Below, one piece after another: positions 3,111 to 21,071 of a DNA stretch of 21,071 bases. The notes beneath the pieces are model-generated. The model had not been told where the DNA came from. It worked only from the letters and a program-made list of their open reading frames with translations, and did not search any database. The stretch is taken from positions 1-21,071 of IMG/VR virus record IMGVR_UViG_3300035698_003074; one strand, written 5' to 3'. Position 1 is the first letter of the stretch, and every line of letters begins with the position of its first letter. The stretch is from a virus. The position numbers and the translations under genes are program-made.

Positions 3111-3273
3111 TTTCGTACTCCTCAAATTCTATGTCACTTGCGTCCATTAAGTGATACTCAATTTTCTTTAGTTCATTTAATATTTGTTCGAGCAAGTCAA
3201 TCACACGCTCGTCAGAGGTCACAACTCTGTCTTGTCCTCCTTCTTCTCTCTGTGGCAATGCTACAAAACTCAT
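3103..3273 (-). CDS. 56-residue helical small protein of the tail cluster
   Basis: This short gene encodes 56 residues from MSFVALPQ to YENA. Its ATG overlaps the TGA of the upstream Ser-rich gene (ATGA), and its TAG lies just past the next gene's ATG, so it is coupled on both sides. The core VIDLLEQILNELKKIEYHLMDASD is an amphipathic helix of the type (LL.QIL.ELK.m..HL...t) found in very many small phage proteins directly after tail fibre genes. A short coiled coil or trimerisation/assembly role is possible; the function is not known. Codon phase, overlaps and family-like pattern make it real despite its size. Confidence 0.75.
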   Translation of the reverse strand: MSFVALPQREEGGQDRVVTSDERVIDLLEQILNELKKIEYHLMDASDIEFEEYENA

Positions 3274-5126
3274 CCCTGCAACCTCCAGTTCTCAGTCGTC
3301 TCAAATTGCAAAGCGTATGACCAAGCATCTTTGAGAATCGCATTTAACTCTTCTTCAATCTCTTCTGTGCCATCTGGAGTAATTGTCACGTCATTACTAG
3401 ATGAACCAACGTTCTTAATGTTATATGATCTTCCATCTCCACCGACGGGAAGAAGAACTTCCATCGCTCCATTGTCAGTGTCGCAATAAATGTTATGGTC
3501 TGTAGACAGTATTGTATAGGGTGAGTCTGCTGCTACCAAACGAGTGGTCCCTGCGACCCTGCCTTCAGTCGTAGTGAGAGTTTTGAACTCGGCGTCATGT
3601 TCTTCCAATGCTATCTTGTACCATATTGCACTCGGACTTGCACTCGGACTTGCACTTGGACTTGCACTTGGGCTTGCACTTGGGCTTGCACTTAGGCTTG
3701 CACTTGGAGACGGCGAAACAATTGCTGACGCACTGGCCGAAGGACTTGCTGATATCGAAGTGCTTGGGCTAGAGCTAGGCGATGACGAGAAAGACGAACT
3801 GGCCGACGGACTAGACGAAGACGAAGCACTTGGACTTACTGAGGGTGAAGGACTTGCTGACGCAGAAGGACTTGTTGACGCACTTGAAGATGCCGAAGCA
3901 CTTGGACTTGCACTAATTGAGCTTGATGGACTTGTCGATGGACTACCGCTAACAGAAGCCGAGGCTGACGCACTGGCGGACACGCTGGCCGAGGAACTGG
4001 CAGACGTACTTGCTGAACTGCTCGGTGATGCAGACGCACTAACACTAGGTGACGTGCTTGGACTTGCCGATGTACTAGGACTAGACGATACACTGACTGA
4101 CGGACTTGCTGAAGAACTTACTGAGGGACTTTCCGATGGAGATGACGATATTGACGCGGAAGGGCTGGCCGAAGGCGAACTGGAAGGGCTGGCCGAAGGA
4201 CTGGAGGATGCTGACGTACTGGGACTACTACTTACAGATGGCGACGATGAAGGGCTAGCACTGGCACTTGCTGAAGGCGACGATGAAGGGCTAGCACTGG
4301 CACTTGCTGAAGGCGATGATGAAGGGCTAGATGCTGCACCTGTTCCTATGATAATTGGCTCTGGCGTGTAGCGTGCGTAGCTGTCTAGGTTGTCGGCTTG
4401 AACTTCTGAGGCGGTTAGGGCTCGGTTGCGTATTGCTGACATGTCGATCTGACCATTGAAATTAACAATCGGTAGATCTACACCACTGCCAAAATATGTC
4501 CCAATAGTGGTTGGAGTTGACTCATCACTAGAATAGTCAACAGTCGCGGAGCTTAGTGTGCCAGTTTTTCGTACTGAGCCATCTATGTAGATCGCAACGA
4601 AAGTTCCATTTTTCACTGCTGCATAATGGTGCCACCCTGTATCTACCGTATCTGTAGTAGTGATGATTTCAATCGCATTTGCCACTACTACAATAAAACT
4701 AACTGTATTATCACTGTTAGTTCTTAATAAGGCCCCAGCAAGAGTCCCTGTACCTCCTGCACCCCCGGTCGCTCCGTCAACCTGCAACCCAAATAAGGCA
4801 TTATACTCGCCTAACACATCAAGCTTCGCTCTGGCAAAAAGAGTGAAATCCTGAAGTTCTAAATCAGGCTTGTCCCCAATTAAAATATAATCGCCAGTAC
4901 CATCAAACTCAATCGCCGGACCATTAAAACCAGCAACCCACTGAGGATCACCAGCGAAGGTTCCAGTTTTCCCATTTCCAGAACCATCATAAACCTTATT
5001 GCCGCCCCTCTCGTTGAACACCCACTCACACGTCAGACCTTTAGACGCAGGGTGTGCCAGGTTAGGCAGAGCCCCAAGAAGGGGCTTCTGGTTAGGTACT
5101 CTAAGTTGTGGAACTAAGATAGCCAT
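3270..5126 (-). CDS. LamG-type lectin-domain tail protein with long Ser/Ala/Pro-rich linker
   Basis: A 618-residue protein in three parts. Residues about 30-250 form a LamG/concanavalin-like jelly roll: CEWVFNERGG..VYDGSGNGKTGTF, GPAIEFDGTGDYILI, DFTLFARAKL, GWHHYAAVKNGTFVAIYIDG, FNGQIDMSAIRNRALTASEV. Residues about 265-500 consist almost only of Ser, Ala and Pro, with a few Val, Ile, Thr, Leu, Phe, Glu and Gly. Residues 501-618 are a compact beta-rich end with YTILSTDHNIYCDT, a pattern common at C-termini of phage fibre subunits. The likely job is glycan or receptor binding on the virion, with the linker as a flexible or glycosylated stalk. The gene starts 2 bases after the previous stop and has only a weak ribosome site, suggesting coupling. 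Function is inferred; the domain reading is fairly secure. Confidence 0.85.
   Translation of the reverse strand: MAILVPQLRVPNQKPLLGALPNLAHPASKGLTCEWVFNERGGNKVYDGSGNGKTGTFAGDPQWVAGFNGPAIEFDGTGDYILIGDKPDLELQDFTLFARAKLDVLGEYNALFGLQVDGATGGAGGTGTLAGALLRTNSDNTVSFIVVVANAIEIITTTDTVDTGWHHYAAVKNGTFVAIYIDGSVRKTGTLSSATVDYSSDESTPTTIGTYFGSGVDLPIVNFNGQIDMSAIRNRALTASEVQADNLDSYARYTPEPIIIGTGAASSPSSSPSASASASPSSSPSASASASPSSSPSVSSSPSTSASSSPSASPSSSPSASPSASISSSPSESPSVSSSASPSVSVSSSPSTSASPSTSPSVSASASPSSSASTSASSSASVSASASASASVSGSPSTSPSSSISASPSASASSSASTSPSASASPSPSVSPSASSSSSPSASSSFSSSPSSSPSTSISASPSASASAIVSPSPSASLSASPSASPSASPSASPSASPSAIWYKIALEEHDAEFKTLTTTEGRVAGTTRLVAADSPYTILSTDHNIYCDTDNGAMEVLLPVGGDGRSYNIKNVGSSSNDVTITPDGTEEIEEELNAILKDAWSYALQFETTENWRLQG
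3627..4334 (-). repeat. Coding tandem repeats, Ser/Ala/Pro (SPSA-type) linker
   Basis: Codons 265-500 of the lectin-domain protein are built of short SPS/SAS units. Near 3629-3710 the DNA is a nearly perfect 12-base repeat (ACTTGCACTTGG on the plus strand) encoding SPSA. Near 4235-4330 a longer unit of about 36 bases, containing GGGCTAGCACTGGCACTTGC, recurs. In the middle, Ser codons vary (TCA, TCG, TCT, AGT, AGC), so the amino acid pattern is kept while the DNA is not, which argues for selection on the protein. Confidence 0.9.
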
Positions 5127-5951: not shown

Positions 5952-8582
5952 CTATGTTTTTTCTATAAAACAAATATTTGGATAAAAGCATACCGAAGCT
6001 GCTTTATACCTATAAATATCCCTTATCTTTTCCGTTAGTCCTGTAAATAATTCTGGTACACCTTGTTGATCCTTATAACTATGGAAACAGTCTTCGATTA
6101 CATAGATACCACTGGTAGATGTCATCTGCCCTCGCTGCCTTAAAGCGGGCCACAATGCCTTAAAACTAGTTAAAATAGAACTAGGATGGTGACATCCATC
6201 ATCAATGATCACATCGTAGGGGCCTTTGGCTATAACTCTATCCAAATCTGTCTGTACTATTTGATCGCCAATTACAAAATCTATCTTTGCTTTACGCACT
6301 AATGGTTTTCTGGACACATCTTTAATGTCCATGCCGACAATATTGGCTTTTGGAAAACACTTACGCCATAGATATACTGAATTGCCTTGATCAACACCAA
6401 TCTCTAATATATTTAAACGACCTTTTGTTTCATAAATATGCTTCAGATGCCGATCATAATATCCAGTATAGTTGTGCATATAGTATTTATTAGTACATTC
6501 GGCACGACCGTTCTTTGAAAACATTTTCTGTGCTGTCTTTTCAATAAGTCCACCACTACGATAGTCCATGACGTATAAACTTTGCTTCCATGCTTTCTTA
6601 TCTTTAAACCTACGCACGAATACAGTCTTGATTCCAATGGCCTTGGCAATAATCAGCCTTCTACCACCTCTTACAACAATCTGCCTTCCGTTCTCATAAT
6701 AGCAATCTATTGGCGTATGTATTCCACCACTTTTAAGACTTTGGTATAGTCCTTCAGCGTCTCGCATTTTCTTTAAAACATGCTGTTCGCCTTTTCTTGT
6801 AACAGGATCTCTGTCTGAAACATTTAATCTCAATACCAAATAGTCAAAGTACGGATGTTTCTGTAATGTTTCATCATCAGTCTCTATACCCTTTTTGATA
6901 TCATTGACAAACTGATTAAACACTTTCATAAAATGATTACCACTTCCAAGATGAGTTGGATTTGTTTTTCCTGCCTCAAACATATTTGGAAGTTCTTCAT
7001 AAAAGGCATCAACATTACGTGCAAGTAAGTTGAATTTACATTCCATGAAAATCTCGTCACCTTCCATAACGGATTCCAGCACTTTAGCTGCACATGGCCA
7101 TCCATCCAATTCAACAGCGGCTCCTGTAACGGCTGTTATCTTGGTGTGCATATTGTATTTATGATGAATATTTATGACAGGCTTATCAATACTGAACAAA
7201 GCACAATTGTCTCTAAAACTTGCAATCTTGTCTTTGCCATGTTCAAGAATATTACTCCATTCCTGCCGACCTTCTAACCTTTCCTTTAGTCCTGTAATAA
7301 ACCACTCACGATTCGCTATCATTGCACACTGAGAGGTACGTTTCTTTTTAAAGTATGCCTTCTCATTTGGAATCAACATATATAGTGATTCACAGTAATA
7401 GGCACGATCCTTTTCAGGCGGATCGAATTTAAAGTACTCTGATGGATAAAGACAGTCAGTTTCGCATAACGCAATGTTTTCAGTGTCTAATGACTCAGCA
7501 CCGAGTAGGATTTGCCTAAGTTGGTTATTTGCAGAAATGCCAACATTGCCGACTACTATATTGTTCTCAATACTGACAGGACAATGAGTGACTGCTACAA
7601 TTGGACTGTTGCCAGCGTTCTCTTTTATCACATTAAGCGTATAGTCTATCATCGGCTTTGGTTCTTTATTGGCCGAGATATAGACAATGCCGGTCTTGGC
7701 TTTGCTGACCTCTTTAAAACTATCCCATCCTGGTAATGGGGCGAACTTATCAACCAACCATTGTAGTGGCCTCTTCTGCAACGGCCACTTACCCTTAAGC
7801 CAAATATCCCTTGAATATGCTCTGGCTTCCTTTTGTGACTTATTCGATATTTCATACGGAAATCCAATTTCGCCAGTGCGGAACCAATGGGCAAACCAAG
7901 TCTTCTTATTGACGACATGACGCCCACCAGACAGCCATGCCTTCATTGCAACTTCAATACCCATACCACCCCATGAGCCATGACCCTCATCCATGCCACC
8001 AAGTTCCCAAAACCTTGCCTTGTGCATGAAGAAACAAGCACCTTGGCCCGTCATAACATCATCAATCTCTGGAGAGTCTTTGATCCTTGCTTTGTATGCC
8101 TTGTACTCTACAGGATGTTCTCTAGCGGCCTTGCCATCCCAGTAGTATGATCTAAAGGGCCTATCCTCAATGTCAGGCGAACGAACCCACATATAGTCTG
8201 TCTTTTTTCTAAGCTTTGGCTCCCACTTCTCCACATCAAGGTTATACATTCGCGGTATAACAGTCCAATCGTACTCACAATCTGCGGCCAGCTTCACGTC
8301 AAAACCTTGATCAAACATGGAATGTCCATCAGTCTTTAGGATAAACTTGCCACGGGCCAAATGTGCTGCGTAATTAATACCGGCTCGTTGTCCACGAGGT
8401 TCCGTAAAATGAATCAAATTTACACGGGGATCATCAGGTACAGCAGGATCAGGCCAGTACCCATCACAAACTGCGATCACCTCAGTCTTACCTTCCGATG
8501 CAGACAAGATGCTTTCAATTGTTTTTGCAAGATATTGCTCATTCCGTGCTGGAATGATTACGCTAAGGAGCCAGTTTTCCAT
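5952..8582 (-). CDS. Fusion enzyme: DxH glycosyltransferase + second GT-like segment + ParB-like segment + class I methyltransferase
   Basis: An 876-residue protein. Residues 1-280 are a GT-A fold family 2-type glycosyltransferase: LSVIIPARNE (6-15), VCDG (38-41), RGQRAGINYAAHLARGKFILKTDGH with DGH at 85-87 in the metal-binding position, and GGMDEGHGSWGGMGIEVAMKAW (195-216) plus AHWFR (231-235). The DxH and WGG..E..W patterns resemble polypeptide GalNAc-transferases. Residues about 297-500 look like a second, diverged glycosyltransferase-like segment (ALCETDCLYPSEYF). Residues 545-660 resemble a ParB/Srx fold (IVVRGGRRLIIAKAIGIKTVFVRRF). Residues 700-876 are a SAM methyltransferase with NILEIGVDQGNS (724-735), VGMDIKD and DVIIDDGCHH (790-799), like sugar O-methyltransferases. 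The start overlaps the preceding gene by 20 bases. The gene looks AT-richer than its neighbours, suggesting separate acquisition. Probable role: building or methylating a glycan on virion proteins or a surface polymer (inferred). Confidence 0.85.
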   Translation of the reverse strand: MENWLLSVIIPARNEQYLAKTIESILSASEGKTEVIAVCDGYWPDPAVPDDPRVNLIHFTEPRGQRAGINYAAHLARGKFILKTDGHSMFDQGFDVKLAADCEYDWTVIPRMYNLDVEKWEPKLRKKTDYMWVRSPDIEDRPFRSYYWDGKAAREHPVEYKAYKARIKDSPEIDDVMTGQGACFFMHKARFWELGGMDEGHGSWGGMGIEVAMKAWLSGGRHVVNKKTWFAHWFRTGEIGFPYEISNKSQKEARAYSRDIWLKGKWPLQKRPLQWLVDKFAPLPGWDSFKEVSKAKTGIVYISANKEPKPMIDYTLNVIKENAGNSPIVAVTHCPVSIENNIVVGNVGISANNQLRQILLGAESLDTENIALCETDCLYPSEYFKFDPPEKDRAYYCESLYMLIPNEKAYFKKKRTSQCAMIANREWFITGLKERLEGRQEWSNILEHGKDKIASFRDNCALFSIDKPVINIHHKYNMHTKITAVTGAAVELDGWPCAAKVLESVMEGDEIFMECKFNLLARNVDAFYEELPNMFEAGKTNPTHLGSGNHFMKVFNQFVNDIKKGIETDDETLQKHPYFDYLVLRLNVSDRDPVTRKGEQHVLKKMRDAEGLYQSLKSGGIHTPIDCYYENGRQIVVRGGRRLIIAKAIGIKTVFVRRFKDKKAWKQSLYVMDYRSGGLIEKTAQKMFSKNGRAECTNKYYMHNYTGYYDRHLKHIYETKGRLNILEIGVDQGNSVYLWRKCFPKANIVGMDIKDVSRKPLVRKAKIDFVIGDQIVQTDLDRVIAKGPYDVIIDDGCHHPSSILTSFKALWPALRQRGQMTSTSGIYVIEDCFHSYKDQQGVPELFTGLTEKIRDIYRYKAASVCFYPNICFIEKT

Positions 8583-10950: not shown

Positions 10951-11730
10951 CTATTGATCAATACTGAGGTTAATCAAGGCTGCTTCATCAACAGCACCTT
11001 CCAGTAGCACATTGCCAAACGAGGCATTGAGAGTAGTTCGTGTCATACACGTTCCAGCATCCGTAGTGCCATATCCGCAAGAATTTCCAACAGCTACACT
11101 ATCACCGCTGTCAACTATAACAGGACAAGGACCTCCTGTCTGTGCCCAGAAGTAGTATCCATTGGTTACATCAATCAATGGAACTCCGGTAGCATAGCCA
11201 GTTACAGTTGTTGGAAAGAGCACCACGTCAAACCAGCGATTTGGAACCAGTGATATCTCAGACGTAACTATGATCGCATTCTGTATGGGGACTTCCAACT
11301 CAATATGCATGATAGTATCATCAGAAGAGTCTATTTCAGATGCTAGAATCCTATACGAATCTCCAATAGGAGTTACCGTATTGGCAAACATGTAGCCGTC
11401 TTTAAACTCATCACGAGCCCAAGTTCCGCCAGTCGTAATCAATACTGTACCGGAGACGTCTCCGACTTCCCACGCATGGCCAGTCTGTACTGTCTCATGC
11501 GTATCTGTATTAACCACTTGCGATTGAGTCATCTTAGCCTTTAAACAACCGCCTGCGGACCCCGAAACAGCATATCGAAAAATACGATCACCGTCCGTAT
11601 AACATGCTCCCAATCGGTGTTTCTGAGTAGCGCTCTGTTCAAAGACAGATTGCTTTGGCTCAGAACCAGGCCCAAAGACAATGCCCTGATCATATGAAGA
11701 GATACTTAATACTCTTGTGTCCGTAGACAT
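10951..11730 (-). CDS. Head-associated structural protein, paralog 2
   Basis: A 259-residue protein, a diverged copy of the gene just upstream. Shared blocks include YDQG..FGPGSEPKQSV, TQKHRLGA, DGDRIFRYA, TGGTW...EF.DG..FANTV.PIGD.YR, a NRW.DVV.FPT..TGYA.GV segment, and an identical end AALINLSIDQ. It contains more Cys residues than its paralog (GACY, GGCLKAK, SCGYG, TCMTRT). Its leader AAAGGAGCGATATTATG is almost identical to that of paralog 1, so the duplication included the ribosome site. Being right after the major capsid gene suggests a decoration, cement or head-fibre protein, but the function is not shown by the sequence. Confidence 0.75.
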   Translation of the reverse strand: MSTDTRVLSISSYDQGIVFGPGSEPKQSVFEQSATQKHRLGACYTDGDRIFRYAVSGSAGGCLKAKMTQSQVVNTDTHETVQTGHAWEVGDVSGTVLITTGGTWARDEFKDGYMFANTVTPIGDSYRILASEIDSSDDTIMHIELEVPIQNAIIVTSEISLVPNRWFDVVLFPTTVTGYATGVPLIDVTNGYYFWAQTGGPCPVIVDSGDSVAVGNSCGYGTTDAGTCMTRTTLNASFGNVLLEGAVDEAALINLSIDQ

Positions 11731-11742
11731 AATATCGCTCCT

Positions 11743-12531
11743 TTACTGATCAATTGAAAGATTAATCAACGCTGCATCATTAGTATGAGCACCAACAATC
11801 AGCACATTACCCCAAGATTGCTCTAATGTGACTCTAACACCGCACTGACCCGCAACAGCCGCTGTCCCAGGACTACCGACTGTATCGCCTATAACAATTG
11901 TCTCATCGTCATCCACCAATAGAGGGGCAGGGCCTGCTGTTTGGAGCCAACCATAATAGCTAGCAGCAATGTCAACCAACGCTACACCTGCAGCATAGCC
12001 CGTATGAGCTGTCGGAAATACTACAACATCATACCAACGGTTAGGGATCAAAGACATTTCAGACGTCGCACTGATAGCATTTCTTATAGGGGTCTCAAGT
12101 TCGAGATTCATAATCGTATCAGCAGAGCCTTCTGTTGATGCCATGACACGGTAGATGTCTCCTATAGGTGCTACTGTATTGGCAAAAAACCAACCGTCAG
12201 TAAACTCATTATCAACCCATGTTCCGCCTGTTGTAACTAACATGGTCCCACTAATATCCCCAGCAGACCAGGTATTACCCGTTTGTACAATCTCATGCGT
12301 CTTGGTCTCGACTACCTGTACCTGGTTCATCAAAGCTTTTGCCAGCGTTCCTGCTGAGCTGTTCTTTGCATACCTAAAAATTCGGTCGCCATCAATAAAT
12401 TTCGCACCTAGGCGGTGTTTTTGCGTCGATGATGTTTCATAGACGCTCTGTTTCGGTTCTGAACCCGGGCCAAATATAGTTCCCTGGTCATACGTTGGGA
12501 GCGTCAAATATCGTTCTGTTCTACCAGCCAT
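11743..12531 (-). CDS. Head-associated structural protein, paralog 1
   Basis: A 262-residue protein starting 12 bases after the capsid gene, with AAGGAGCGATATT before ATG. MAGRTERYLTLPTYDQGTIFGPGSEPKQSVYETSSTQKHRLGAKFIDGDRIFRYA is a recurrent N-terminus of uncharacterised proteins encoded next to podovirus capsid genes. The rest is beta-rich (GDISGTMLVTTGGTW, GWFFANTVAPIGDIYRVM, NRWYDVVVFPTAHTGYAAGV). Tight linkage to the capsid gene suggests an abundant virion protein. In the first 49 aligned residues of the shared block I count 37 identities to paralog 2. No enzyme motif is seen. Confidence 0.78.
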   Translation of the reverse strand: MAGRTERYLTLPTYDQGTIFGPGSEPKQSVYETSSTQKHRLGAKFIDGDRIFRYAKNSSAGTLAKALMNQVQVVETKTHEIVQTGNTWSAGDISGTMLVTTGGTWVDNEFTDGWFFANTVAPIGDIYRVMASTEGSADTIMNLELETPIRNAISATSEMSLIPNRWYDVVVFPTAHTGYAAGVALVDIAASYYGWLQTAGPAPLLVDDDETIVIGDTVGSPGTAAVAGQCGVRVTLEQSWGNVLIVGAHTNDAALINLSIDQ

Positions 12532-12542
12532 AATATCGCTCC

Positions 12543-13475
12543 TTATGCAACCTGATTAAGACATTCATGAACCTTGGCACCATCCATTCGGACAGCTCCG
12601 CCATTCATCCTGCTATACACCTGGGTAGTGTAACTCTTTGTGGGGAGTTGGTCGATATAAGACTCCACTCCCTTTGCACTGGCATAGATAAGACCATCTT
12701 TTGCCCATGCGAATGTTCGATACGCCGTAGATGTGGCAGCGTCTTTGGTCAATCGTGTGGACTTGATGAAGTAGAAATTCAAGAAGTTCACAATCTTACC
12801 TGTTTCCAGGGGACGGAGACTGACATAATCAGCAGAGGTCAGAGCAGCTAGTTGCAGCATTTCCCGCACGTCCTTGGGTGTAATAGCCCAATAACGTGGA
12901 ATTTCTTCATCGACATCCTCGTCGTCGAAGATTTGCTGCATTGTGGCGATCTTGGCCAGAGTGATGTCATCCAAACTACCAGAACCAGCAACTGTTGCGA
13001 GAGTGCCCAGAGAGGTCACAGTGCCATCGCCATTGATACTGACGGATTCGTCTTTGAAAGCAACCGAGGAAGTCGTAGGAGTGACTCCAGCGGCTGCGGT
13101 GCCGAGAGCGGCAGCGATGAGGATGTCATCTGTCTGGCGGCCCAGGGCTCGGCCTTGATTCTGCATGTACTCGTTCGTAGGCTCGATCAGCATTGCGATC
13201 TTGTCTTCAGAGTCGATGTACGAGTTGGTATGATAGTTACTGGGAGTGACCCACCTACGAGTATGAGGCTGCTCGTTGTTCGGGGTATCCCCGTGTCTGG
13301 TGGTCATTTCCTCAACAATTGCTTCGCCCAAACGATCAAAAGACTTTGATTCCCCTTGGCATCCTTCTTGACGGACGCACATTTGGAGCTTCGACTTTTG
13401 CTGTTGGGCCAAGACGTACAGCATTGAGCTGTATTGCCGCACAAAGGCGGTATCAATTGAGCTTGGTAGAGCCAT
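12543..13475 (-). CDS. Major capsid protein
   Basis: A 310-residue protein, AAGGA 7 bases before ATG. It starts MALPSSIDTAFVRQYSSMLYVLAQQQKSKLQMCV and includes FDRLGEAIVEEMTTRHGDTPNNEQPHTRRWVTPSNYHTNSYID, an early strand typical of the podovirus capsid family related to BPP-1 Bbp17. It continues with QGRALGRQTDDILIAAALGTAAAGVT, the helix and loop of an HK97-fold P domain, a variable GDGTV...LATVAGSG segment, IFDDEDVDEEIPRYWAITPKDVREMLQL, and a C-terminal FAWAKDGLIYASAKGVESYIDQLPTKSYTTQVYSRMNGGAVRMDGAKV. It follows the scaffold gene and a 298-base leader with its own promoter, consistent with the high expression a capsid gene needs. Confidence 0.9.
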   Translation of the reverse strand: MALPSSIDTAFVRQYSSMLYVLAQQQKSKLQMCVRQEGCQGESKSFDRLGEAIVEEMTTRHGDTPNNEQPHTRRWVTPSNYHTNSYIDSEDKIAMLIEPTNEYMQNQGRALGRQTDDILIAAALGTAAAGVTPTTSSVAFKDESVSINGDGTVTSLGTLATVAGSGSLDDITLAKIATMQQIFDDEDVDEEIPRYWAITPKDVREMLQLAALTSADYVSLRPLETGKIVNFLNFYFIKSTRLTKDAATSTAYRTFAWAKDGLIYASAKGVESYIDQLPTKSYTTQVYSRMNGGAVRMDGAKVHECLNQVA

Positions 13476-13570: not shown

Positions 13571-13595
13571 GTCATTTTGCATCATGGCTGATGGC

Positions 13596-13618
13596 AGACC
13601 CACTCGAAAGTGGGGTCT
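13596..13618 (-). other. Strong leader hairpin with TTCG tetraloop
   Basis: On the minus strand AGACCCCACT-TTCG-AGTGGGTCT forms a 9-bp stem with one bulged C, capped by a TTCG loop, the most stable RNA tetraloop class. It is not followed by a T run (next bases GCCATCAG), so it is not an intrinsic terminator. It more likely stabilises the 5' end of capsid mRNA, guides processing or shields the leader. Confidence 0.7.
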
Positions 13619-13631
13619 CTGCTTGAGAAAG

Positions 13632-13651
13632 CTACTATAAGCTGTTCTTAT
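13632..13651 (-). repeat. Direct repeat ATAAGnnnnGCTTATAGTAG, distal copy
   Basis: Minus-strand ATAAGAACAGCTTATAGTAG. It matches the copy at 13720-13739 in 16 of 20 positions (the first five and last eleven bases). Each copy holds an ATAAG/CTTAT inverted repeat. The pair brackets the CRISPR-repeat-like element. Confidence 0.7.
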
Positions 13652-13658
13652 GGTATCA

Positions 13659-13713
13659 ATCTACTATGTTTGTTTCAATCCACGCCTATATGAATAGGCG
13701 ACGTTAAGTAGAT
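13659..13713 (-). repeat. Inverted repeat enclosing the CRISPR-like repeat
   Basis: On the minus strand ATCTACT (13713-13707) and AGTAGAT (13665-13659) are perfectly complementary and lie 5 and 6 bases outside the two ends of the 31-base repeat-like element. In RNA they would form an outer 7-bp stem with the repeat hairpin inside. Confidence 0.65.
13672..13702 (-). CRISPR. Solitary type I-C-like CRISPR repeat (no array, candidate RNA anti-CRISPR)
   Basis: On the minus strand the 31-base element begins GTCGC and ends GTGGATTGAAAC, the two conserved ends of type I-C repeats. Between them CGCCTAT (13700-13694) pairs perfectly with ATAGGCG (13689-13683) around a TCAT loop, the stem-loop that Cas5d recognises in this subtype. 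Known I-C repeats are usually 32 bases. No second repeat, spacer or cas gene occurs in the window, so this is not an array. It lies about 26 bases downstream of the expected start of a good promoter, in the same direction. Solitary repeat units in phages are known to act as RNA anti-CRISPRs by binding Cas proteins; this function is inferred here. Confidence 0.75.
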
Positions 13714-13747
13714 CTTATACTACTATAAGCACAGCTTATAATAAGCT
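13714..13747. promoter_or_regulatory. Cluster of ATAAG/CTTAT palindromes over the capsid promoter (possible operators)
   Basis: Two dyads lie side by side: CTTATA-CTAC-TATAAG (13714-13729) and AGCTTATAATAAGCT (13733-13747). The second covers the -10 element. Two adjacent palindromes over a promoter look like binding sites for a phage regulator, though simple AT-rich promoter context could also give them. Confidence 0.45.
13720..13739 (-). repeat. Direct repeat ATAAGnnnnGCTTATAGTAG, proximal copy
   Basis: Minus-strand ATAAGCTGTGCTTATAGTAG, at the expected transcription start. It pairs with the copy 88 bases downstream (13632-13651). A third partial copy, ATAGTAG, is at 13661-13667. Confidence 0.7.
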
Positions 13748-13762
13748 CTTCTTATTTGTCAA
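13735..13762 (-). promoter_or_regulatory. Sigma70-type promoter for the leader and capsid gene
   Basis: On the minus strand a perfect -35 box TTGACA (13762-13757) is followed after 16 bases by TATAAG (13740-13735). Transcription would start near 13728, run through the solitary repeat and reach the capsid ATG at 13475 after about 250 bases. It lies just after the scaffold stop codon. It is the only clear promoter I found in this long operon. Confidence 0.7.
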
Positions 13763-13773
13763 GGGTTAAATTA

Positions 13774-14727
13774 TTATTTTCTGGTAGGATACGCTTCTTG
13801 GTACTTCTCACGTATTCTATTTGTAATTTCAGTTCTTTGCTCATCTGACATATCAGAACCCATATTCATATAGCCTGGAGTGGTTCTTAGGTCGTTGATC
13901 TCTTTCAGTGCTTGGTCTGGTGTGGACTGGGTCAGTTCGGCCACCAAGGCCTTACTCTCGACCATCCGACTGCCTATATTGGCAGCAAACCGCACAAAGT
14001 CAGGATCTCCCGCAAATTTTTGCAGGAAGTCCAGTTTTTGTGTTTCATTATTGCCGAAAGCCTCCGAGATCAATCGCTTGACCACATGAGTCCTCTCTTC
14101 AAATGCCTCGCCCCATTCCTTCTTCAGGGCCAGTACATCCTCGTCGTGCTTACGTTCTGCGTCTTGCTGGATCTGCTGCTGGGCGGCTTCTGCTGCCTCG
14201 GCATCCGCCTGCATAAACTGCTCAAACTGAGCTTGGGTCGCTCCGACCTTGTGGGCGATCTCCTTGCTCTGGGTCAGTTTTTCCTCGGTATAGATGTCTT
14301 CCATCCCCTCTGGGACCTCGAACTTATACTCTTCCGAGGTAGCAGGTTTGGCCAAAGCGGGATTGATCTTGCCCACAGATTCAAAGAATGCGTCCCATTC
14401 GGACGGATCAGCATCTTGTTTGGGCACAGCAATCTTGTTCTTTCCCACCATCTTCTCTGCATGGACCGTCCTTTTTGCCAAGTCAGCCAGGTTTTTGATC
14501 ACCCCGAGGGAATCACTGCCTCGAACATCTTCTGGCAATTTGTCTGATTTGTGCCAATCTTCTACAAAGCTGCCGTCTGGATTGACCAGCCCAGCAACTT
14601 CCAAGAGGTTTGGGGAGGGAGTTGCCTCCGGTGCCGCTGGGGTTTCTACTGGGGTATCCACAAGAGACGGAGTTTCCGGGGCTGCTGGAATTTCTATTAC
14701 TTCTGGGGTTGCTTGGTCTTCTGGCAT
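13774..14727 (-). CDS. Capsid scaffolding protein
   Basis: A 317-residue protein with AGGAG 6 bases before ATG, starting 1 base after the preceding stop. The first 50 residues are acidic and rich in Pro, Ala and Glu (EIPAAPETPSLVDTPVETPAAPEATP). Then comes a globular-helical part with FVEDWHKSDKLPEDVRGSDSLGVIKNLADLAKRTVHAEKMVGKNKIAVP, a well-known block of phage scaffold proteins, and DPSEWDAFFESVGK. Residues about 170-215 are a long Ala/Glu/Gln-rich helix, followed by ALKKEWGEAFEER, FAGDPDFVRFAANIG and a basic end. It lies immediately before the capsid gene, as scaffolds usually do. Confidence 0.88.
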   Translation of the reverse strand: MPEDQATPEVIEIPAAPETPSLVDTPVETPAAPEATPSPNLLEVAGLVNPDGSFVEDWHKSDKLPEDVRGSDSLGVIKNLADLAKRTVHAEKMVGKNKIAVPKQDADPSEWDAFFESVGKINPALAKPATSEEYKFEVPEGMEDIYTEEKLTQSKEIAHKVGATQAQFEQFMQADAEAAEAAQQQIQQDAERKHDEDVLALKKEWGEAFEERTHVVKRLISEAFGNNETQKLDFLQKFAGDPDFVRFAANIGSRMVESKALVAELTQSTPDQALKEINDLRTTPGYMNMGSDMSDEQRTEITNRIREKYQEAYPTRK

Positions 14728-20657: not shown

Positions 20658-20921
20658 CTAATTAAGACTGCGTTGGTCTTCTTTATGGTGTTTTGGAAAA
20701 ATTTCATTTGAGGCCCTAGTAACAAGACTTCTTTTATCTGCTTTGTGAATTTTCCATATTTCATTTGAAGCCCTAGTAACAAGACTTCTTTTATCTGCTT
20801 TGTGAATTTTCCATATTTCAGGGAGCACTGTGTATGATGATGACGACCCGCCGCTTGGGGGTAATGGCTTTGAGAGACCCCCGCCCCCTCTTCTATTGGC
20901 TATATTGTGGATCTTATTCAT
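20658..20921 (-). CDS. Small protein with internal 19-residue tandem repeat
   Basis: I choose the ATG at 20921 (87 residues) because GAGG lies 8 bases upstream; a GTG two codons earlier overlaps that site. The N-terminus is NKIHNIANRRGGGGLSKPLPPSGGSSSS, flexible and Gly/Ser-rich. EIWKIHKADKRSLVTRASN then occurs twice in a row, followed by a shortened third copy EIFPKHHKEDQRSLN. The repeats are basic with alternating hydrophobic residues. I recognise no family. The start lies within the last codons of the upstream repeat protein, so the two are coupled. Confidence 0.6.
   Translation of the reverse strand: MNKIHNIANRRGGGGLSKPLPPSGGSSSSYTVLPEIWKIHKADKRSLVTRASNEIWKIHKADKRSLVTRASNEIFPKHHKEDQRSLN
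20702..20815 (-). repeat. 57-base tandem duplication inside a coding region
   Basis: Two adjacent 57-base copies (20702-20758 and 20759-20815) differ at a single base that I can see (G versus A after TTTCATTTGA). The unit is 19 codons, so the frame is kept. A diverged partial copy at the protein's end indicates older expansion of the same unit. Confidence 0.9.
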
Positions 20922-21071
20922 CGTCACTACCTCGGTCCGTAAATGGCCACCGTCTGATTGTCTTGTCCTGTACCGGAGCAGGTGACATGTCCTGTACCGG
21001 AGCAGGTGACATGTCCTGTACCGGAGCAGGTGACATGTCCTGTACCGGAGCAGGTGACATGTCCTGTACCG
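20914..21071 (-). CDS. Partial repeat protein, (MSPAPVQD)n followed by a short end
   Basis: An open frame enters from the right edge. It reads VQD, then four exact MSPAPVQD units, then KTIRRWPFTDRGSDDE and a TAA at 20914. The 24-base unit keeps the frame. The stop overlaps the next gene's ATG region, with that gene's ribosome site inside this frame, as in true coupled phage genes. The Pro/Ala repeat is probably an extended linker or a display tail. The beginning of the gene is outside the window, so its main domain is unknown. Confidence 0.6.
   Translation of the reverse strand, partial: VQDMSPAPVQDMSPAPVQDMSPAPVQDMSPAPVQDKTIRRWPFTDRGSDDE
20964..21071. repeat. Perfect 24-base tandem repeat at the window edge (4.5 copies)
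   Basis: Units at 20964-20987, 20988-21011, 21012-21035 and 21036-21059 plus 12 further bases are identical. Each junction carries the palindrome GACATGTC. The array runs off the edge, so the copy number is a minimum. The identity suggests recent expansion; a contig end caused by an unresolved repeat is also likely. Confidence 0.95.

What the first reader, a model, noticed from the sequence alone, without database searches (positions are those of the whole stretch)
13672..13702. Solitary type I-C-like CRISPR repeat in the capsid leader: candidate RNA anti-CRISPR
Seen: a minus-strand 31-base element starting GTCGC, ending GTGGATTGAAAC, with a perfect 7-bp stem (CGCCTAT/ATAGGCG) and a 4-base loop. 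Both ends and the fold are those of type I-C repeats. There is only one copy and no cas gene. Known: phages and prophages carry solitary repeat units that, as small RNAs, bind Cas proteins in aberrant complexes and block immunity (RNA anti-CRISPRs). Inference: this phage expresses a repeat mimic that binds Cas5d or the I-C Cascade of its host. Placement between scaffold and capsid genes, behind a promoter, is unusual for such an element.
Basis: partly seen in the sequence, partly recalled or inferred. Interest (0 to 1): 0.93.

Follow-up and report, generated by a model that had tools for sequence, protein, structure and literature searches.

The report
Lone CRISPR repeat in capsid-gene leader
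This phage carries a single copy of a bacterial type I-C CRISPR repeat in the RNA leader of its capsid gene, most likely a decoy that ties up the host's CRISPR machinery; this is a known kind of trick, and here it sits inside a leader hairpin that close relatives have without the repeat.

Summary
Window 13702-13672 (minus strand) reads GTCGCCTATTCATATAGGCGTGGATTGAAAC: both type I-C repeat ends and a perfect 7-bp stem with a 4-base loop, one copy in the 21-kb record, about 1.7e-6 expected by chance. It lies about 26 nt into the predicted capsid transcript (TTGACA-16-TATAAG), inside a leader hairpin. Relatives with 90% identical capsids keep the promoter and hairpin but have no repeat, so the repeat was gained or lost recently. 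None of 84,980 bacterial and archaeal species genomes has an array repeat with this stem. The only two genome hits are solitary repeats inside type I-C cas operons, each followed by a guide with a perfect seed and TTC PAM match to its own cas locus (CreR-like). The phage 'spacer' has no such match in the phage. A sample of 97 solitary I-C repeats from viral contigs shows them enriched in sense leaders just before ribosome-binding sites, several before structural genes, so this placement is not unusual. Best reading: an RNA anti-CRISPR (Racr) candidate of type I-C carried by an mRNA leader, function untested and host unknown. New member of a known kind, with some unexplained features.

The parts
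13672..13702 (-). Solitary type I-C-like CRISPR repeat, 31 nt: GT + 7-bp stem + UCAU loop + UGGAUUGAAAC 3' flank
13735..13762 (-). Promoter-like TTGACA (13762-13757), 16-nt spacer, TATAAG (13740-13735); start of transcript predicted near 13728
   Evidence: read; same spacing in L003, TATAGG in L005; not expression-tested
13721..13735 (-). 5' arm of the outer leader stem (GCUGUGCUUAUAGUA); in relatives L003/L004 it is half of a perfect 17-bp mRNA 5' hairpin
13641..13655 (-). 3' arm of the outer leader stem (UACCAUAAGAACAGC), so the repeat sits in the loop region of a long hairpin
13636..13671 (-). Stretch that would occupy the 'spacer' position after Cas5d cleavage: AAACATAGTAGATTGATACCATAAGAACAGCTTATA; begins with AAAC like 11 of 97 other phage solitary repeats; no full-seed TTC-PAM target in the phage
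13636..13756 (.). Cluster of TATAAG-N5-CTTATA palindromes (13636-13652, 13703-13719, 13724-13740, 13740-13756), operator-like, flanking the repeat
   Evidence: 7 in window, 0.86 expected
13594..13622 (-). Second leader hairpin GCAGAGACCCCACUUUCGAGUGGGUCUGC, kept in L003 and, with compensating changes, in L006, which lack the repeat; no U-run behind it
12543..13475 (-). Major head protein gene, downstream of the repeat
   Evidence: phrog_3437 E 1.8e-66
13774..14727 (-). Upstream gene, putative scaffold by position (phrog_3742, unknown function)

Best explanation
The element is a solitary type I-C repeat that works as an RNA anti-CRISPR carried in the 5' leader of the capsid mRNA. Shown here: sequence, fold, position, absence in relatives, lack of self-target, and that such repeats commonly sit in phage leaders.
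For: All conserved I-C repeat positions and the hairpin present once. In solitary I-C repeats of viral contigs the variable stem positions keep pairing through many two-sided changes, so the fold is under constraint or copied from functional repeats. Of 97 such repeats, 33 lie sense in a leader with a ribosome-binding site, 11 antisense; random intergenic control 18%. Downstream genes with a PHROG name include two portals, head decoration, tail chaperone, head-tail adaptor, tail lysin and endolysin. Several phages carry two or three separate copies on one strand. Own-genome seed targets with TTC PAM: 4 against 2.6 expected, so they are not self-guides. RacrIC1 is expressed on a bicistronic mRNA and inhibits I-C (PMC10651486).
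Against: No expression or binding data. No host known. Best array repeat here only 84% identical, below the 90% used by SRUFinder (PMC10651486), though not against its repeat set. The stem is AT-rich (25% GC between the fixed ends, against 69% on average for array repeats). The outer leader stem could hide the element. A late capsid promoter would make the decoy too late to stop early CRISPR attack. Close relatives do without it.
Confidence: 0.55

Rival explanations
1. A viral CreR mimic: the repeat and the following bases form a guide RNA that takes the host Cascade to a partly matching site in the host's own cas promoter and shuts cas genes down.
For: Of 84,980 species genomes the only two with a CGCCTA/TAGGCG-stem I-C repeat have it as a solitary repeat inside a cas operon (Pseudovibrio between cas3 and cas5d; Novosphingobium between cas7 and cas4), unlike their own array repeats. 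Both guides match a TTC-PAM site in their own cas locus with a full seed (7 of 7, position 6 excepted) 100-250 bp away (about 0.02 expected each). The phage element is 90% identical to both.
Against: The two hits are alphaproteobacterial and unlinked to this phage. The stem may be shared because solitary repeats degenerate freely. The target cannot be tested without the host; other phage solitary repeats commonly run straight into a ribosome-binding site, so their 'spacers' are mRNA leaders. Two cases only.
Confidence: 0.15
2. A cis switch: Cas5d cutting or Cascade binding in the leader changes capsid mRNA stability or translation, so the phage reads or exploits the host's Cas proteins.
For: Leader position, nested in a 5' mRNA hairpin of the type that stabilises messages, and abutting ribosome-binding sites in many phages.
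Against: In this phage the start codon is about 200 nt downstream of the repeat, so direct blocking of translation is unlikely; downstream genes of other cases are varied.
Confidence: 0.15
3. A recent, functionless acquisition (recombination with a host array or mini-array remnant, or slippage), tolerated in an expendable leader loop.
For: Absent from the close relatives whose leader is held; neighbouring palindromes and AAAC tails suggest local slippage.
Against: All functional positions and the stem are intact, with AT-rich but perfect pairing unlike any array repeat seen here; many unrelated phages have the same arrangement.
Confidence: 0.13
4. Chance hairpin or an unrelated leader structure that resembles a repeat.
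For: The leader is rich in hairpins.
Against: Expected 1.7e-6 per window.
Confidence: 0.02

Closest known systems
RNA anti-CRISPRs (Racr), especially RacrIC1 of a Bifidobacterium prophage (PMC10651486)
   Same: Solitary I-C repeat in a phage, with hairpin and 3' flank, in an mRNA behind a promoter, no cas genes
   Different: RacrIC1 follows an AcrIC5 gene; here the neighbours are the capsid and a putative scaffold gene, and the repeat is nested in a leader hairpin; activity and host unknown
CreR cas-regulating RNAs (type I and V-A; reviewed in PMC13131331, PMC12737573)
   Same: Solitary, shortened and AT-richer repeat; 90% identical to two CreR-like elements in I-C cas operons
   Different: No cas genes, no identified promoter target
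CreA antitoxin of CreTA (PMC9458426)
   Same: One ectopic repeat followed by a guide-like stretch
   Different: No degenerate second repeat and no toxin gene seen; no repressed self-promoter match
Phage-borne CRISPR mini-arrays
   Same: Repeat in a virus
   Different: No second repeat within 100 bp at more than 42% identity

Membership tests
Racr / solitary repeat unit (SRU) | Intergenic repeat matching a CRISPR repeat type | tested here: met
   13672-13702 lies between ORFs 12543-13475 and 13774-14727; I-C ends and fold
Racr / solitary repeat unit (SRU) | At least 90% identity over 90% of a known array repeat (SRUFinder rule) | tested here: inconclusive
   Best of 35 array repeats seen here 84%; the SRUFinder repeat set was not available
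Racr / solitary repeat unit (SRU) | No second (partial) repeat within 100 bp | tested here: met
Racr / solitary repeat unit (SRU) | Promoter within 250 bp upstream | tested here: met
   TTGACA-16-TATAAG, spacing kept in relatives; by sequence only
Racr / solitary repeat unit (SRU) | Host carries a CRISPR-Cas of the same subtype | not testable with these tools
   Host unknown; nearest named phages by capsid are Pelagibacter phages at 38%
Racr / solitary repeat unit (SRU) | RNA inhibits CRISPR immunity by binding Cas proteins | not testable with these tools
   Bench assay needed
CreR cas-regulating RNA | Located in or next to a cas operon | tested here: not met
   Only phage genes around it; no PADLOC hit in ten proteins scanned
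CreR cas-regulating RNA | Guide with PAM and seed match to a cas promoter | not testable with these tools
   No full-seed TTC-PAM match within the phage; host promoter unknown
CRISPR mini-array | At least two repeats flanking a spacer | tested here: not met

The most novel reading that the evidence does not exclude
Phages of many kinds put I-C repeats into the leaders of their own messages, structural ones included, so that host Cas5d turns phage mRNA itself into Cascade decoys; this phage carries the weak-stem form that hosts use for CreR-type self-regulation and may thereby also act as a viral cas repressor.
Probability: 0.22. Interest if true: 0.75.

Novelty: new member of a known kind. Interest (0 to 1): 0.46.

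Why it matters
If true, a late structural message doubles as an RNA anti-CRISPR, which would make the decoy dose follow phage gene expression. The survey also gives a testable general rule, that type I-C solitary repeats sit sense in phage leaders with an excess of AAAC after the repeat, and the two cas-operon hits point to CreR-like control in type I-C, with the phage element resembling those regulators more than array repeats.

Tried and rejected
Array origin: one scan of 84,980 species genomes for CGCCTA/TAGGCG stems found no array, only two solitary cas-operon repeats. Self-targeting guide: no full seed with TTC PAM in the window; across 97 phage repeats 4 against 2.6 expected. Degenerate second repeat: none. 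Rfam: none. Relatives keeping a decayed repeat: L003-L006 and L172 have none in their leaders; in L002/L167 only 160 bases upstream are held, so it cannot be judged. Exact extended element GCGTGGATTGAAACAAACATAG in viral contigs: none. Short-repeat search in 385 alphaproteobacteria and 298 genomes of the order of Novosphingobium gave mostly GC-rich array repeats and no further weak-stem case among the places listed. Sample names of the related contigs could not be traced in papers, so no host guess is made. Papers on Cas5d (Nam 2012, Garside 2012) are not held; Cas5d steps rest on general knowledge and their citation in PMC10651486.

Full report
OBSERVATION. The minus strand of 13672-13702 reads GTCGCCTATTCATATAGGCGTGGATTGAAAC and folds into a 7-bp stem with a UCAU loop and a free 3' flank (z -2.97). 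The two fixed ends with the right spacing are expected about 1.7e-6 times in such a window; shuffles give none. It is alone in the record, and its flanks show no second repeat.

CONTEXT. Downstream on the same strand is the major head protein (12543-13475, phrog_3437), upstream a putative scaffold (13774-14727). Reading the leader, TTGACA (13762-13757), 16 bases and TATAAG (13740-13735) predict a start near 13728, about 26 nt before the repeat. The leader folds well (z -3.3): an outer stem formed by GCUGUGCUUAUAGUA and UACCAUAAGAACAGC encloses a second stem and, at its tip, the CRISPR hairpin, with AUUGAAACAAAC unpaired. Around it lie four TATAAG-N5-CTTATA palindromes, which could be operators.

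RELATIVES. Close capsid relatives were found in IMG/VR. L003, L004 and L005 (90% capsid identity) keep the promoter, with TTGACT, and the outer hairpin, there a perfect 17-bp stem in L003 and L004, but have no repeat: their loop is a few bases where the window has an insert of roughly 50-60 nt containing it. L006 (80%) and L172 (69%) lack it too. The element is thus a gain in this lineage, or a loss in the relatives. A second hairpin downstream (13594-13622) is kept with compensating changes in relatives without the repeat, so it belongs to the leader, not to the CRISPR element.

HOST-SIDE MATCHES. A scan of 84,980 species genomes for I-C repeats with the CGCCTA/TAGGCG stem gave two loci, neither an array. 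In Pseudovibrio stylochi GTCGCCTATTTGTAGGCGTGGATTGAAAC lies between cas3 and cas5d, whereas its array repeat is GTCGCCCCTCATACAGGGGCGTGGATTGAAAC. In Novosphingobium sediminicola GTCGCCTATGCTTTAGGCGTGGATTGAAAC lies between cas7 and cas4, its array repeat again being GC-rich. The cas gene names here are my reading of the ORF translations; no family search was run on them. In both, the bases after the solitary repeat match a nearby site in the cas locus with a TTC PAM and a full seed, the sixth base being the only mismatch in the first eight: Pseudovibrio ATGTAACCTTCCTA against ATGTAGCCTTCCTA, Novosphingobium TCCCTTTA against TCCCTATA just before cas4. About 0.02 such sites are expected per locus. 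These look like CreR elements of type I-C. Whether I-C CreR is already published I could not settle from the held papers; one review names I-B, I-E and V-A, another says type I in general.

PHAGE-SIDE SURVEY. A scan of viral contigs for GTCGC-N9..18-GCGTGGATTGAAAC stopped at 120 loci; 97 solitary, distinct cases remained. Variable stem positions 6 to 9 mostly pair above shuffles, with many two-sided changes. In 33 a start codon with a ribosome-binding site follows within 70 nt on the same strand, in 11 on the other strand; random intergenic points give 18%. Named downstream genes include portal (2), head decoration, tail chaperone, head-tail adaptor, tail lysin, endolysin, sigma factor and DNA-metabolism genes. 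Some phages have two or three separate copies. AAAC follows the repeat in 11 of 97 and in 0 of 184 array cases (P about 6e-6); the window shares it, and some have (AAAC)n. I have no explanation beyond slippage. Caveats: naive ORF calls, a truncated sample, and phages related by descent. The capsid-leader position is therefore within the common pattern.

MECHANISM. Most likely a Racr: Cas5d cuts the leader, keeps the handle, and Cascade subunits assemble on a message with no target and no closing repeat. The Racr paper shows this logic for I-F and activity for RacrIC1 (PMC10651486). The CreR-mimic rival rests on the 90% likeness to two regulators, above the 84% for the best array repeat, but no target can be checked without a host. 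A cis switch is possible. Steps shown here are sequence, fold, context and distribution; transcription, cutting and inhibition are inferred.

NOVELTY. Solitary I-C repeats in phages and their anti-CRISPR action are known, so this is a new member of a known kind. Less familiar are the nesting in a leader hairpin at an operator-like capsid promoter, the leader bias, the AAAC excess and the CreR-like weak stem.

Noticed in passing
window 13636-13756: Four TATAAG-N5-CTTATA palindromes around the capsid promoter; two exact inverted copies in L003. Possible operators of an unknown late regulator.
   Followed up: partly
L008 2767-2795 (-), L007 1591-1620 (-): Solitary weak-stem I-C repeats inside cas operons with TTC-PAM, full-seed matches to their own cas locus: probable type I-C CreR.
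   Followed up: partly
L035 358-389, 955-986 and a third copy in the same 50-kb record; also L018, L021, L060: Phages with two or three separate solitary I-C repeats, all on one strand, some just before ribosome-binding sites.
   Followed up: partly
first bases after phage solitary I-C repeats, e.g. L035, L057, L065, L067: Excess of AAAC, sometimes (AAAC)n, after the repeat; absent after array repeats.
   Followed up: partly
window 10951-11730 and 11743-12531: Two tandem paralogous genes directly behind the capsid gene, no family match.
   Followed up: no
window 20964-21071 and 20701-20820: Perfect 24-bp tandem repeat running off the right end, and a 57-bp repeat.
   Followed up: no
window 3270-5126 and 5952-8582: Ser/Pro-repeat protein with a laminin-G/lectin domain; an 876-aa protein joining a family 2 glycosyltransferase and a methyltransferase domain.
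   Followed up: no
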